From an uncultured Elusimicrobiales bacterium (GTDB lineage: Bacteria; Elusimicrobiota; Elusimicrobia; Elusimicrobiales; Elusimicrobiaceae), in contig CALUVB010000001.1 of assembly GCA_944324115.1 (NCBI GenBank), positions 62,001-126,000 of the forward strand: a stretch of 64,000 nucleotides of DNA. Direction: 5' to 3'. The first letter of the stretch is position 1. Each line of letters starts with the position of its first letter. The notes beneath the pieces are model-generated. The model did not search any database. It was not told where the DNA came from and worked only from the letters and a program-made list of their open reading frames with translations. Below, piece by piece: positions 34,398 to 38,673 of the stretch. A program made the translations under genes and the position numbers.

Positions 34398-34820
34398 TTA
34401 TTTGACCAGTAATTCCATTTCTACGCGGCGGTTTTTCTGGCGGCCTTCTTCCGTATCATTAGAAGACACGGGGGCAGCTTTTCCATAGCTGGAGATAACA
34501 ATGTTATTTGCGGGTATGCCGCGTTTGAGCAAGGCGTCTGCCACCGCTTGTGCCCGGCGGGCAGAAAGACCCATATTGTAGGCGTCAGTGCCTATGTCAT
34601 CAGTGTATCCGTTCAAGCGGACAGATGTTTTGGCATCTTGGCTGATGGCTTTAGCCAGCATATCCAGTTTTTCATTGAAAGAAGGGGCAATCTCGGCGCT
34701 ATCAAATTGAAAGAGGATAGGGTCTTTATAATCAATGATATACAGCACAGGATCTGCTGGAGTTGAAGTTATACAGAAGTCTTCATAAAAAATGCGGCGT
34801 TTTTTCTGTTGCCGTGGCAA
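34398..34820 (-). CDS. OmpA-domain protein lacking a signal peptide, 5' end uncertain
   Basis: About 140 codons encode an OmpA/MotB-type peptidoglycan-binding domain (ILFQFDSAEIAP, NGYTDDIGTDAYN, LSARRAQAVADAL, EGRQKNRRVEMEL). In frame the only start is TTG at 34820, and no signal sequence or lipobox precedes the domain. A hydrophobic start (ATG near 34864, MIQYFTLFSFI) is found upstream in another frame but stops after 11 codons. The copy may therefore be a damaged tandem duplicate of the next gene, or it may start differently. The domain itself is intact. Confidence 0.65.
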   Translation of the reverse strand: MPRQQKKRRIFYEDFCITSTPADPVLYIIDYKDPILFQFDSAEIAPSFNEKLDMLAKAISQDAKTSVRLNGYTDDIGTDAYNMGLSARRAQAVADALLKRGIPANNIVISSYGKAAPVSSNDTEEGRQKNRRVEMELLVK

Positions 34821-34912
34821 TCAATTCTAAATAAAGGAAAACAAAGTAAAATACTGAATCATTCTAACTCTTTTTTTAATTACCGGAAATCCTCTTGTGG
34901 ATTAATCAGAAA

Positions 34913-35341
34913 CTATTTATCAGGGTAGGGAAATTCAATTTCCACCCGGCGGTTTTTTTGACGGCCTTCCGGTGTCTTGTTAGATACAATAGGTTTTTCG
35001 GAACCGTACCCCTTAGCTTTAATGTGGTCTTGGGGTACCCCGCGGATTTGTAATGCTTTGGACACGCGGTCGGCGCGTTTTTGGGACAAGCGCAGATTAC
35101 TCTTTTCATTTCCGCTGGAGTCTGTATAACCGCGCACTTCCATAATGACGGAAGGATCTTTTTGATATACTTTTACTGCTTCGTCTATCAGCTTATAGGA
35201 AGACATTTCTATTTCGTCTCCATTCACTTCAAACGTAATAGTGGAAAAATACATTTGCCCTACGCGGCCGGGCTGCGTATTGCCCGTATGACAGGCAGCC
35301 GCCATAAGTACTGCTCCGCAAAGCAGCAGTAATTTTTTCAT
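34913..35341 (-). CDS. OmpA family lipoprotein
   Basis: The 142-residue product has a lipoprotein signal (LLLCGAVLMAAAC) and an OmpA C-terminal domain (TITFEVNGDEIEMSS, VRGYTDSSGNEKSN, LSQKRADRVSKAL, EGRQKNRRVEIEF). This is Pal-like, although no tol genes are nearby. It tethers the outer membrane to peptidoglycan by family precedent. ATG 35341 has GAGGAGA upstream. It follows folK by 39 nt on the same strand and may be co-transcribed with it. Confidence 0.9.
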   Translation of the reverse strand: MKKLLLLCGAVLMAAACHTGNTQPGRVGQMYFSTITFEVNGDEIEMSSYKLIDEAVKVYQKDPSVIMEVRGYTDSSGNEKSNLRLSQKRADRVSKALQIRGVPQDHIKAKGYGSEKPIVSNKTPEGRQKNRRVEIEFPYPDK

Positions 35342-35380
35342 GCTGAAAATCTCCTCAATATCCATCTAATTTTTATTATT

Positions 35381-35872
35381 CTACAAAATTTTACACGTTG
35401 CCGCCCCTTTATTTCGCATTAATTCCCGGTATAGGGCGGTAATTGTTTTGCCTAATTTGGGGTGTATGTAGTCGGGCAGCAGGTAATTCAGGGGCTTTAA
35501 TACAAATTCCCTGTCCTGCAGGCGCGGGTGGGGGACAAAGAGCATGGCTTGGTCGTCAAAAATAATTTGGTCATCATAAAATAAAATATCCAAATCAATG
35601 ACGCGCGGGCCGTCTTTAAATGTAGGCACACGGCCCAGCTTTGTTTCCAGCTCTTTGAGTTTCCGCAACAAATCAGCCGGCTTGTATGGGGTGGACAAAA
35701 GCACTACTGTATTCACGAAATCCGGCTGCGCGTCATAGCCTTCCGGTTTGGAAAGGATATAGGGCGCAGTTTCTTTGACTTGGCCCAAAGCGCTTAAAGC
35801 TTCTATGGCCCGGTCCAAATTTTGTTTTGGGTTTCCTTGGTTGCTGCCCAGTCCCAATACAGCCAGCGGCAT
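35381..35872 (-). CDS. folK: 6-hydroxymethyl-7,8-dihydropterin pyrophosphokinase
   Basis: HPPK transfers pyrophosphate to 6-hydroxymethyl-dihydropterin, the substrate of FolP. The 163-residue product shows VLGLGSNQGNPKQNL at the N-terminus, and the signature PRVIDLDILFYDD with the two Mg-binding Asp, followed by VPHPRLQDREFVLKPL. Its ATG shares one base with the stop of the preceding PTPS-like gene (TAATG), so the two are translationally coupled. It is the last gene of the folate set. Confidence 0.96.
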   Translation of the reverse strand: MPLAVLGLGSNQGNPKQNLDRAIEALSALGQVKETAPYILSKPEGYDAQPDFVNTVVLLSTPYKPADLLRKLKELETKLGRVPTFKDGPRVIDLDILFYDDQIIFDDQAMLFVPHPRLQDREFVLKPLNYLLPDYIHPKLGKTITALYRELMRNKGAATCKIL

Positions 35873-36222
35873 TATTCTTCTCCTCGGTATTCCACCCAGC
35901 GGTCTTCGGCTTCCGCTACTTTAACGCTGTAGAGTTTTGGCATTTTGGCCTTAATGCGGTCATAAAGCCAAATGGCCAAAGATTCAGCGGTAGGGAATGG
36001 AAGAAAGGTGGTTAAGTCGGATCCGTCTAACATTTTTTCCAATTCATTTTTAAACATTTGGCTGATTTGGCGGAAATCTACCAAAAAACGTTCTTCGTTA
36101 ATATCTCCGTAAAAAGTGGCTTCGTAGCGGAAAAGATGTTTGTGTAAGGGTTCCGCCAAGGTGCCGTCATGGCTGTGCATGGCGGTAAATGATCCGGCTT
36201 GGGTTAAATAGACTTTGCTCAT
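35872..36222 (-). CDS. 6-pyruvoyl-tetrahydropterin synthase paralogue, PTPS-III type (probable FolB replacement)
   Basis: The 116-residue protein belongs to the PTPS/QueD family (COG0720) but contains no cysteine at all. Zinc ligands are H16 (SFTAMH) plus H27 and H29. Glu24 lies three residues before H27, giving ExxHxH. In the family this pattern in place of CxxxHGH marks PTPS-III enzymes. These convert dihydroneopterin triphosphate directly to 6-hydroxymethyl-dihydropterin and replace dihydroneopterin aldolase (FolB). It lies between folP (ATGA overlap) and folK (1-nt overlap), exactly where folB would be expected. A true QueD with Cys is separately encoded at 38326. The assignment is strong but not tested. 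Confidence 0.85.
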   Translation of the reverse strand: MSKVYLTQAGSFTAMHSHDGTLAEPLHKHLFRYEATFYGDINEERFLVDFRQISQMFKNELEKMLDGSDLTTFLPFPTAESLAIWLYDRIKAKMPKLYSVKVAEAEDRWVEYRGEE

Positions 36223-37013
36223 GAGTTGGCCTCCAGTTCTAAAAAGAAATTGATGACTTTCTTGGTTTCTTTTACGTCATGTACACGCAAAATATCCGCT
36301 CCGGCACGCAATGCGGCAAAGTGAGCGCACAGCGTTTGTGTTTTCCGTTTGGGCGGTTTTTCTGCCGGCTGGCTTAGGAACTTTTTATGCGAAAGTCCAA
36401 TTAGCAGCCGTACTCCCATATTAGTAAAAAAATCCGCATGCGCCAAGAGGTGATAGTTCTGTTCGCGCGTTTTGGCAAAACCGAAGCCGGGGTCTATGAT
36501 GATTTGTTCGTTGGTTAACCCGCATTGGCGGGCTTGGGTTATTTTAGCGGAAAGAAAATCTTTGATTTCCTGCAAGAGGTCGTCATATTGCGTCATCTCC
36601 TGCATGGTTTGCGGCGTACCGCGGCTGTGTGTGATGACGATTTGCGCACCGAAATCTTTTACCAGTTTGAACATTTCCGGATCGGGGGTGCCGCTGATAT
36701 CATTGACCATATTTATGCCGGCTTTAAGCCCTTCCAGCGCGACGGGTATTTTGAATGTATCTTGGGATAAAGTTATATTGGGCCAGCGCGAGCGGGCTTG
36801 TTTAATAAGTTCCAGCGTGCGCACCAATTCTTCTTCCGCGCTGACGGGGGTGGCGCCGGGGCGTGTGGATTCCCCGCCAATATCCAGAATATCCGCTCCG
36901 TCAGCTATATGCTGGTTGCATTTGGCAAGCAGCTTGTCTAAATTATTCTGCGGATCTCCGTCATAAAAAGAATCGGGAGTGGCATTGACGATACCCATAA
37001 TTTGCTTGGTCAT
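36219..37013 (-). CDS. folP: Dihydropteroate synthase
   Basis: FolP condenses hydroxymethyl-dihydropterin pyrophosphate with p-aminobenzoate and is the sulfonamide target. The 264-residue TIM-barrel has MGIVNATPDSFYDGD, DILDIGGESTRPGA, NDISG, IIDPGFGFAKT and IGLSHKKFL. The HGV-type end reads LRVHDVKETKKV. AAGGAAA lies before ATG 37013. A 142-nt gap separates it from folE upstream, and it overlaps the PTPS-III gene by 4 nt. Confidence 0.96.
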   Translation of the reverse strand: MTKQIMGIVNATPDSFYDGDPQNNLDKLLAKCNQHIADGADILDIGGESTRPGATPVSAEEELVRTLELIKQARSRWPNITLSQDTFKIPVALEGLKAGINMVNDISGTPDPEMFKLVKDFGAQIVITHSRGTPQTMQEMTQYDDLLQEIKDFLSAKITQARQCGLTNEQIIIDPGFGFAKTREQNYHLLAHADFFTNMGVRLLIGLSHKKFLSQPAEKPPKRKTQTLCAHFAALRAGADILRVHDVKETKKVINFFLELEANS

Positions 37014-37155: not shown

Positions 37156-37776
37156 TTATTTTATCATCTCTAAAAATTCATTGCGTACTTCCATCTTTTT
37201 AAATGCGCCTCGTATGGCGCTGGTTACCATAACCGCATTGTGTTTTTCAATGCCGCGCGAGCTGATGCACATATGTTTGGCTTTACACACCACCATAACG
37301 CCGTGCGGCTGCAAAGTTTCCATTAAACTGTCTGCAATTTGGGCCACCAGCTTTTCTTGAATTTGCAGCCGTCGGGCAAATACTTCCACCAAACGGGCCA
37401 ATTTGGAAATGCCCAGCACCCTTCCTTTAGGCAAATACCCTATGCTGATGGATCCGAAAAATGGCTGTAAATGATGTTCGCAGGTGGAGTAAAATTCTAT
37501 ATCTTTAAGTACCACCATTTCATCGCAGGAACCTTCCGTAAATGTTTTTAATACGTCTTGCGGGCGCATTTTATAGCCGCCGAACAATTTCTCCCAACTG
37601 CGCAAAATGCGTTTGGGGGTTTCCTGCAAGCCTTCGCGGGTAGGGTCGTCTCCGATATAGCTTAAAATTTCGCGCAGGTTTTGTAACACTTTTTCTTGGG
37701 TTATTTTATGTGGGCCAACTTGTGTGTTTGCAGGCTGAGTCTTAGAAACGGATTTTGTTTTATTATTTTTACGCAT
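37156..37776 (-). CDS. folE: GTP cyclohydrolase I
   Basis: FolE opens GTP to 7,8-dihydroneopterin triphosphate, the common precursor of folate and queuosine here. The 206-residue product has DDPTREGLQETPKR, EFYSTCEHHLQPFFG (zinc Cys and His), KLARLVEVFARRLQ, and CKAKHMCISSRGI with the second zinc Cys. The first 25 codons overlap the end of queE by 76 nt in another frame, and no later Met start exists before the conserved core. An AGGAG lies about 11 nt upstream. Confidence 0.96.
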   Translation of the reverse strand: MRKNNKTKSVSKTQPANTQVGPHKITQEKVLQNLREILSYIGDDPTREGLQETPKRILRSWEKLFGGYKMRPQDVLKTFTEGSCDEMVVLKDIEFYSTCEHHLQPFFGSISIGYLPKGRVLGISKLARLVEVFARRLQIQEKLVAQIADSLMETLQPHGVMVVCKAKHMCISSRGIEKHNAVMVTSAIRGAFKKMEVRNEFLEMIK

Positions 37777-38291
37777 AAATCTATATTCTCCTGTTGATTG
37801 CTTTGTGGCTGCAAGCAGACGGCGGTGCCGGCGCTTGCGTATGGGAAATATGTTTTTAATTCTTCTAAATCGGTGTCCTGTCCAACTACGATTTTTATGG
37901 CATGCGCTTTGGCAAGCATTTCTTTATTGACGTGTTTTTTGGGGGATACGACCAAAAAGTCTATGTCGGACACGTCGGCATTTTGGGCGCCGTTGCTTTC
38001 CATATGCACGGTCCAGCCGCGTTGTTTAAGCAACCGTGCCAAAGGCGCAAAATTTTGCTCTGTAGGTTCTCCGCCCGTGATGATGACATTACGACAGGGG
38101 TATTGCTCCAGCTCTTTTAAAATATCATTGTAAGTCATATCTCGCCCGTGGGAAAAAGCATAGCGGGTGTCGCAAAAAGAACAATTCATACTGCAGCCAG
38201 CCAAACGCAAAAACACCGCCGCTATGCCGGTATAGGGTCCTTCACCTTGCAGAGAATAAAAAATTTCATTTACCTTTAGCATACTGTTCAT
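37701..38291 (-). CDS. queE: 7-carboxy-7-deazaguanine synthase QueE
   Basis: QueE is a radical SAM enzyme that contracts 6-carboxytetrahydropterin to 7-carboxy-7-deazaguanine. The 196-residue product has the substrate motif FYSLQGEGPYTG and the iron-sulfur motif CSMNCSFC (CX3CX2C). ITGGEPTEQN, HMESNGAQ and VVSPKK follow. It is a compact version of the family. It lies between queD and folE, overlapping folE by 76 nt. QueC and QueF are not in the window. Confidence 0.94.
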   Translation of the reverse strand: MNSMLKVNEIFYSLQGEGPYTGIAAVFLRLAGCSMNCSFCDTRYAFSHGRDMTYNDILKELEQYPCRNVIITGGEPTEQNFAPLARLLKQRGWTVHMESNGAQNADVSDIDFLVVSPKKHVNKEMLAKAHAIKIVVGQDTDLEELKTYFPYASAGTAVCLQPQSNQQENIDLCVKIIKQNPFLRLSLQTHKLAHIK

Positions 38292-38325: not shown

Positions 38326-38673
38326 TTAGCGGCCTTCCCACACGGCGGCTGCGCTTTCGTTTTCCCATAATTCCAACGTTTTCAGCGTTAGCCCCAGCGG
38401 TTTTAGGGCGGCGGCAGTTTTGTTAAATAAATACGGGGCCAAATTTTCCGCTGTTGGATTTTCCAGTAAATCATTTAAATAACAATGATCCGGCAGCTGC
38501 TTGTCCAGCAATGGCTTTAGCTTCTTAAAATCGCTCACCATGCCATCTGCTTGTACGGGGCCTTCTATCAGAAAGACCACTTTCCAGGTATGCCCATGCA
38601 AATTATGGCATGGACCGTCATAGTGCGGCAGGTGGTGGGCAGAGCTGAATTTGCGAATAATTTTTAAAAGCAT
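38326..38673 (-). CDS. queD: 6-carboxytetrahydropterin synthase QueD
   Basis: The 115-residue protein is the canonical member of the PTPS family: zinc His in FSSAHHL, and CHNLHGH with catalytic Cys22 and zinc His26 and His28. The late Glu is in the LELWENESAA segment. It produces 6-carboxytetrahydropterin for QueE. It differs clearly from the Cys-less paralogue at 35872. It lies 2 nt after the DUF1189 gene and 34 nt before queE. Confidence 0.94.
   Translation of the reverse strand: MLLKIIRKFSSAHHLPHYDGPCHNLHGHTWKVVFLIEGPVQADGMVSDFKKLKPLLDKQLPDHCYLNDLLENPTAENLAPYLFNKTAAALKPLGLTLKTLELWENESAAAVWEGR

What the first reader, a model, noticed from the sequence alone, without database searches (positions are those of the whole stretch)
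35872..36222. Cysteine-free PTPS paralogue sits where folB should be
The protein between folP and folK is a PTPS/QueD homologue with no cysteine and an ExxHxH motif (Glu24, His27, His29). In COG0720, ExxHGH marks PTPS-III enzymes that make 6-hydroxymethyl-dihydropterin directly from dihydroneopterin triphosphate, replacing FolB. Here Lys replaces the Gly between the two His. A canonical Cys-containing QueD is encoded 2 kb away, so both family branches share the FolE product.
Basis: partly seen in the sequence, partly recalled or inferred. Interest (0 to 1): 0.55.

Follow-up and report, generated by a model that had tools for sequence, protein, structure and literature searches.

The report
Unusual enzyme replacing FolB in folate synthesis
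A bacterium in which no folB gene could be found very probably makes its folate precursor with a modified relative of a queuosine-pathway enzyme, and comparison with its relatives suggests that one active-site glutamate marks the enzymes that can do this job.

Summary
Window 35872-36222 (minus strand) encodes a 116-aa PTPS-fold protein with no catalytic cysteine and the motif E24-x-x-H27-K28-H29, between folP and folK, 2 kb from a Cys-type QueD. PF02152 (FolB) found nothing in its genome or in a 121-genome sample of its order. I judge it a FolB-replacing, PTPS-III-like 6-hydroxymethyl-dihydropterin synthase (0.86); no assay exists. The glutamate and three zinc histidines are invariant in 68 of 68 orthologues read; folK follows directly in 68, and six are fused to FolK in one ORF. 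In 212 Elusimicrobiota genomes, a Glu-type PTPS occurs in 160 of 162 with folK, no FolB and PTPS read, and in 0 of 8 with FolB. Of 176 folK+ genomes, 102 carry a CExxHGH enzyme; in the window's clade the roles look split: QueD kept Cys, this paralogue kept Glu. It departs from the published signature: Gly is lost in 67 of 68 and no orthologue keeps Asp-His, so it is a variant, not a textbook PTPS-III. Exceptions: G186, G191; six folK+ genomes had no readable PTPS.

The parts
35872..36222 (-). PTPS-III-like paralogue (called PTPSX here): Cys-less, Glu24-x-x-His27-Lys28-His29, His16, Glu104; proposed 6-hydroxymethyl-7,8-dihydropterin synthase replacing FolB
   Evidence: PF01242 2e-16; invariants; model pLDDT 95.6
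35381..35872 (-). folK (HPPK), overlaps the paralogue by one base; fused to it in 6 of 68 orthologous loci
   Evidence: TIGR01498 119.8 bits, above cut-off 54.1
36219..37013 (-). folP (dihydropteroate synthase), overlaps the paralogue by 4 bases
   Evidence: TIGR01496 288.7 bits, above cut-off 162.6
37156..37776 (-). folE (GTP cyclohydrolase I), makes dihydroneopterin triphosphate
   Evidence: TIGR00063 230.5 bits, above cut-off 181.6
37701..38291 (-). queE-like radical SAM protein (7-carboxy-7-deazaguanine synthase)
   Evidence: TIGR04322 1.9e-37, 128.9 bits, below the curated cut-off of 200
38326..38673 (-). queD (PTPS-I): CHNLHGH with Asp-His dyad, no Glu after Cys
   Evidence: PF01242 1.4e-26; TIGR03367 78.9 bits, below the cut-off of 89.25

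Best explanation
The protein is the FolB-replacing enzyme of this bacterium. It takes the FolE product, dihydroneopterin triphosphate, at a zinc site (His16, His27, His29) with the pterin anchored by Glu104. It uses Glu24 in place of the PTPS cysteine to cleave the side chain to 6-hydroxymethyl-7,8-dihydropterin, which goes straight to FolK. The neighbouring QueD keeps Cys and the Asp-His dyad and makes 6-carboxytetrahydropterin for queuosine. Many relatives in the phylum appear to do both jobs with one CExxHGH enzyme; in the window's clade the jobs are split between two genes. SHOWN: gene order, fusion to FolK, no PF02152 match, conservation, exclusion pattern, fold prediction. INFERRED: substrate, product, residue roles.
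For: FolB not found: own genome, order sample 0 of 121. folK directly downstream in 68 of 68, folP directly upstream in 66 of 68; one-ORF fusion with FolK in 6 of 68. Glu24, three zinc His and the anchor Glu 68 of 68; catalytic Cys 0 of 68. Partner QueD: residue after Cys never Glu, 63 of 63 readable in two-copy genomes. Among folK+ genomes with PTPS read: FolB- have a Glu-type PTPS in 160 of 162, FolB+ in 0 of 8. Single-PTPS rows of the order: Glu in 33 of 33 folK+, 8 of 22 folK-; simulation along the gene tree reached this in 0 of 4000. Strong purifying selection. The model matches QueD and PTPS folds at Z 16-18. In Plasmodium PTPS the Glu at this site is needed for 6HMDP: the Glu38Cys, Glu38Gln and Glu38Leu variants gave none (PMC2229834, section read).
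Against: No assay. The strict ExxHGH signature is not met, and the Asp-His dyad kept by the archaeal ExxHGH protein 2dj6 is lost. G191 (folK+, 99% complete) has neither FolB nor a Glu-type PTPS; G186 has only a sub-threshold FolB hit (22.8 bits) and no Glu. Six folK+ genomes had no readable PTPS, and 11 of 25 folK- genomes with PTPS read keep the Glu. G128 (83% complete) has a PTPS match of the paralogue's strength (5.9e-16, not read) but no folK found. The starred-branch independent-pairs test had only 4 pairs and was not significant. In eukaryotes a published survey saw no PTPS/folB pattern (PMC4224340, passages).
Confidence: 0.86

Rival explanations
1. It makes 6-hydroxymethyl-dihydropterin, but from dihydroneopterin monophosphate or dihydroneopterin, after a phosphatase, rather than from the triphosphate.
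For: PMC5041015 (section read) says that archaeal PTPS-III members might use the monophosphate; the closest PDB sequence match is archaeal PH0634. The loss of dyad and Gly could reflect another substrate.
Against: FolE, the triphosphate producer, is in the same cluster; none of the six genes scanned is a phosphatase (further neighbours were not scanned).
Confidence: 0.2
2. The paralogue is a second QueD or PTPS-II enzyme (6-carboxytetrahydropterin or biopterin branch), and folate comes from an undetected aldolase.
For: Same fold; the best VIA matches are QueD and PTPS chains. Aldolases other than PF02152 were not searched for.
Against: No Cys at the catalytic column and no Asp-His pair in 68 of 68; a Cys-type QueD is already present; FolK fusion; FolB not found.
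Confidence: 0.05
3. A decayed or non-catalytic paralogue, perhaps a structural partner of FolK or QueD.
For: Loss of the Asp-His dyad and of a Gly that is present in all 188 Cys-type rows of the alignment (three proteins entered twice).
Against: dN/dS 0.003-0.094; all zinc ligands, Glu24 and the anchor Glu kept 68 of 68; no PF02152 FolB to do the step.
Confidence: 0.05

Closest known systems
PTPS-III (COG0720; Plasmodium PTPS, PF1278-type archaeal and bacterial enzymes)
   Same: PTPS fold, Glu in place of the catalytic Cys, three zinc His, folate gene context, FolB not found
   Different: Gly of ExxHGH replaced (Lys here; non-Gly in 67 of 68) and Asp-His dyad lost; fused to FolK in some species
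PTPS-I/III hybrid (CExxHGH)
   Same: Found in the same phylum; the same Glu; tracks folK
   Different: The hybrid keeps Cys, Gly and the dyad and would serve both pathways with one gene
QueD (PTPS-I, CxxxHGH)
   Same: Fold, zinc ligands, anchor Glu; encoded in the same cluster
   Different: No Cys, no dyad; Glu present
FolB / DHNA (PF02152)
   Same: Proposed product, pathway place, T-fold (VIA Z about 8-10)
   Different: No PF02152 match

Membership tests
PTPS / COG0720 (PF01242) | Profile match above curated cut-off and PTPS fold | tested here: met
   60.5 bits vs 22.4; pLDDT 95.6, VIA Z 18.1 to 2oba
PTPS-III | Strict signature ExxHGH | tested here: not met
   ExxHKH in the window; non-Gly in 67 of 68 orthologues, HGH kept in G114 only; L243, outside the 68, also keeps HGH
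PTPS-III | Glu at the active site instead of the catalytic Cys | tested here: met
   Glu 68 of 68, Cys 0 of 68
PTPS-III | Folate gene context and locally missing folB | tested here: met
PTPS-III | Makes 6HMDP from DHNTP / complements a folB mutant | not testable with these tools
   needs experiment
QueD (PTPS-I) | CxxxHGH with Asp-His dyad; TIGR03367 cut-off | tested here: not met
   no Cys, dyad reads DG; 35.2 bits vs 89.25. The operon's own QueD also misses this cut-off (78.9), so the motif is the better test
PTPS-II | CxxxxxHGH | tested here: not met
   no Cys in the protein
PTPS-VI | Subfamily signature of the original papers | not tested
   the two original papers tried are not held
FolB (DHNA) | PF02152 match | tested here: not met
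   not among the Pfam hits of the protein up to E 0.1

The most novel reading that the evidence does not exclude
This clade carries a rewired folate-type PTPS. Released from the Cys-dependent queuosine reaction, it has discarded the Asp-His half of the PTPS catalytic triad and the Gly between the zinc histidines, and has fixed its own set (Glu24, His18, Arg51, each 68 of 68). The triad would then be needed only for the Cys chemistry, and side-chain cleavage to 6HMDP would need only zinc, Glu and perhaps His18.
Probability: 0.45. Interest if true: 0.62.

Novelty: new variant of a known kind. Interest (0 to 1): 0.5.

Why it matters
Annotation based on the strict ExxHGH motif would miss nearly all of this clade of proposed FolB replacements. 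The phylum offers three natural states: FolB with a Glu-less PTPS; one CExxHGH enzyme that may do both jobs; and two split enzymes. Together they make the role of a single active-site Glu, and the need for the Asp-His dyad, directly testable. If right, it also fills the missing step of folate synthesis in a lineage that one search shows mainly as metagenome assemblies, many from gut and rumen.

Tried and rejected
A hidden PF02152 FolB: no evidence. A degenerate gene: unlikely.

Origin left open. The tree put the paralogue with WOR-3 ExxHGH proteins (99/95), which suggests lateral gain, but those proteins were found because they resemble it. A common clade with the family's QueD was not rejected (AU p 0.134; 0.288 with the G093 hybrid).

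The independent-pairs test was uninformative (4 pairs). A first motif script missed 20 of 55 rows because its pattern required 30 residues upstream; it was replaced. The two papers on COG0720 promiscuity and archaeal PTPS-VI, identifiers recalled, are not held. Print: in the listed results (20 of 71 papers; 8 of 8; 12 of 31; 12 of 45; 8 of 8; 15 of 233) I saw no title or abstract start on this locus or on PTPS in Elusimicrobiota; (12 of 78) was a general genome search. Only open-licence papers are held and I saw only listings, so this is weak evidence of novelty. Passages of PMC7546909 were looked at for the dyad in Plasmodium PTPS and did not settle it.

Rows dropped or doubled: one search left out the ~200-aa PTPS of G219 and G228 (G191's was not in that set) and holds three proteins twice (G093, G095, G099), so its 188 Cys-type rows are 185 proteins. 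In one search a second chance match in G185 was ignored. In one search the Glu state of 19 genomes and of G191 was entered by hand. The FolB listings show only the first rows, so that the same genomes were scanned as rests on the equal sample sizes and tallies.

Full report
OBSERVATION. The ORF at 35872-36222 is on the minus strand, starts with ATG and encodes 116 aa. It matches PF01242 (PTPS) at 2e-16 but scores only 35.2 bits against the QueD equivalog (cut-off 89.25). Order on the minus strand: queD 38326-38673, queE 37701-38291, folE 37156-37776, folP 36219-37013, the paralogue, folK 35381-35872. It overlaps folP by 4 bases and folK by 1.

FOLB. PF02152 has no match up to E 10 in the window's genome (96% complete). 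At E <= 0.01 it has none in 61 genomes of relatives, 90 of the family, 51 of them at least 90% complete, or 121 of the order, 87 of them at least 90% complete; each set includes the window's genome. The same search rang in 10 of 14 control genomes (12 at the looser limit). In 149 genomes of the phylum, 11 match and 8 exceed the cut-off, all eight in other families of the same class; the three weak ones (G186 22.8, G156 17.2, G177 16.8 bits) I count as FolB-. No other kind of aldolase was searched for.

CONTEXT AND FUSION. I read the paralogue in 68 genomes: 55 of 57 genomes of the window's genus searched for PTPS (G013 and G122 had no match), 11 of 12 of g12 (G128 not read) and 2 of 2 of g13; further members of these genera seen were not searched for PTPS. 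folK is directly downstream in 68 of 68 and folP directly upstream in 66 (within 300 bases); the two g13 genomes keep only folK beside it. The full six-gene set lies in one fetched stretch in 62 of 68. In six genomes (G004, G015, G019, G022, G032, G066) the paralogue and FolK form one uninterrupted ORF of 285-334 codons, stop to stop. One search gave 58 loci: 50 from records titled Elusimicrobi-, 4 'uncultured bacterium', 4 WOR-3. L193 is assembly UBA1436, whose contig length equals that of G118 of the window's genus. G067 is a single contig of 1,643,562 bases; I recall this as the size of Elusimicrobium minutum Pei191, but no call names it.

ACTIVE SITE. In an alignment of 260 PTPS rows, the 68 paralogues keep all three zinc His and the anchor Glu, always have Glu24 and never the catalytic Cys. 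Of 188 Cys-type rows (three proteins entered twice), all 188 have the Gly and the Asp-His dyad. Among paralogues Gly remains in 1 (G114); 16 keep the Asp, 4 the His, none both. L243, outside the 68, also keeps Gly. His18 and Arg51 are fixed in 68 of 68, where Cys-type rows have mostly Tyr (175 of 188), and Thr or Lys (150 of 188). dN/dS to five chosen relatives is 0.003-0.094 by an own script. The AlphaFold2 model from 41 sequences has mean pLDDT 95.6 and pTM 0.87. Its best VIA matches are 2oba (Z 18.1, rmsd 1.4, 113 aligned), E. coli QueD (Z 17-18), 2dj6 (Z 16.4) and Plasmodium PTPS (Z about 13). 2dj6 has an ExxHGH motif and keeps Asp-His.

NATURAL EXPERIMENT. In the order sample, 55 genomes outside the two-copy genera have a PTPS match; 54 were read (G120 not), giving 55 rows (G087 has two). 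The residue after the catalytic Cys is Glu in 33 of 33 rows from folK+ genomes and in 8 of 22 from folK- genomes. Fisher p is 7e-8 without regard to descent. Otherwise the residue is A, G, K, R or S. On the PTPS tree the Glu needs 8 changes and folK 9; pairs on well-supported branches were too few for a test (4). A two-state simulation on that tree, kept at 12-16 non-Glu rows (4000 of 19335 runs), gave none with all 33 folK+ rows carrying Glu; the tree comes from the same protein and is midpoint-rooted. Over 212 genomes, the order sample and the rest of the phylum sample: folK+ and FolB- with PTPS read, 160 of 162 carry a Glu-type PTPS (102 CExxHGH, 58 as a Cys-less paralogue); folK+ and FolB+, 0 of 8. 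Fisher p 3e-12, again without regard to descent, and the FolB+ genomes are all of one class. folK- with PTPS read: 11 of 25. The two exceptions are G186, which has a sub-threshold FolB hit near its PTPS, and G191, unexplained. Six folK+ genomes had no readable PTPS (G013 has a contig end beside folK; G195, G199, G229, G237 no match; G201 a fragment). Two genomes of family f4 (G181, G213) show a separate split pair, CKYLHGH plus DEPLHGH, the latter also without the dyad.

SPLIT. In the two-copy genera the residue after the QueD Cys is never Glu (63 of 63 readable, one more truncated), whereas family members with folK and a single PTPS have it (G093, G099) and the one without folK does not (G095). 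G093 has queD-queE-folE-folP-folK without the paralogue. So the resident enzyme seems to have lost Glu once a dedicated enzyme stood beside folK. Whether that enzyme came by duplication or transfer is open.

LITERATURE. The signatures (PTPS-I CxxxHGH, PTPS-II CxxxxxHGH, PTPS-III ExxHGH, hybrids CExxHGH) come from PMC5041015 (passages; its COG0720 section read). The role of Glu38 comes from PMC2229834 (passages; two sections read), where only the wild type made 6HMDP. PMC4224340 (passages) found no clear PTPS/folB pattern in eukaryotes. PMC4674097, PMC3223725 and PMC7546909 were seen as passages.

VERDICT. The enzyme most likely works like PTPS-III and replaces FolB (0.86). By the strict signature it is a variant outside the published definition. 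Substrate, product and residue roles remain to be measured.

Noticed in passing
L122 (G063, genus g12): The folP-paralogue-folK part resembles the window's genus (69/60/54% to the window, against 44-47/36-38/41-45% in two other g12 genomes) while its QueD groups with g12: likely lateral replacement of this module.
   Followed up: partly
L071, L074, L075, L078, L095 (family f2): FolK is continuous in one ORF with what reads as a FolC-type Mur ligase; recognised by eye, no profile run.
   Followed up: no
G063:C3:15212-15631 and G082:C1:352839-353258: A third, distant PTPS homologue of 44-46 bits in two genomes that already carry QueD and the paralogue.
   Followed up: no
L346 (G191): A 99% complete genome with folK but neither a FolB match nor a Glu-type PTPS; its PTPS frame is 197 aa. 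Another enzyme may fill the step.
   Followed up: partly
window 34398-35365: Two neighbouring minus-strand ORFs that look like OmpA-type peptidoglycan-binding domains (by eye, no profile run), just downstream of folK; the one at 34398-34820 is listed with a TTG start.
   Followed up: no
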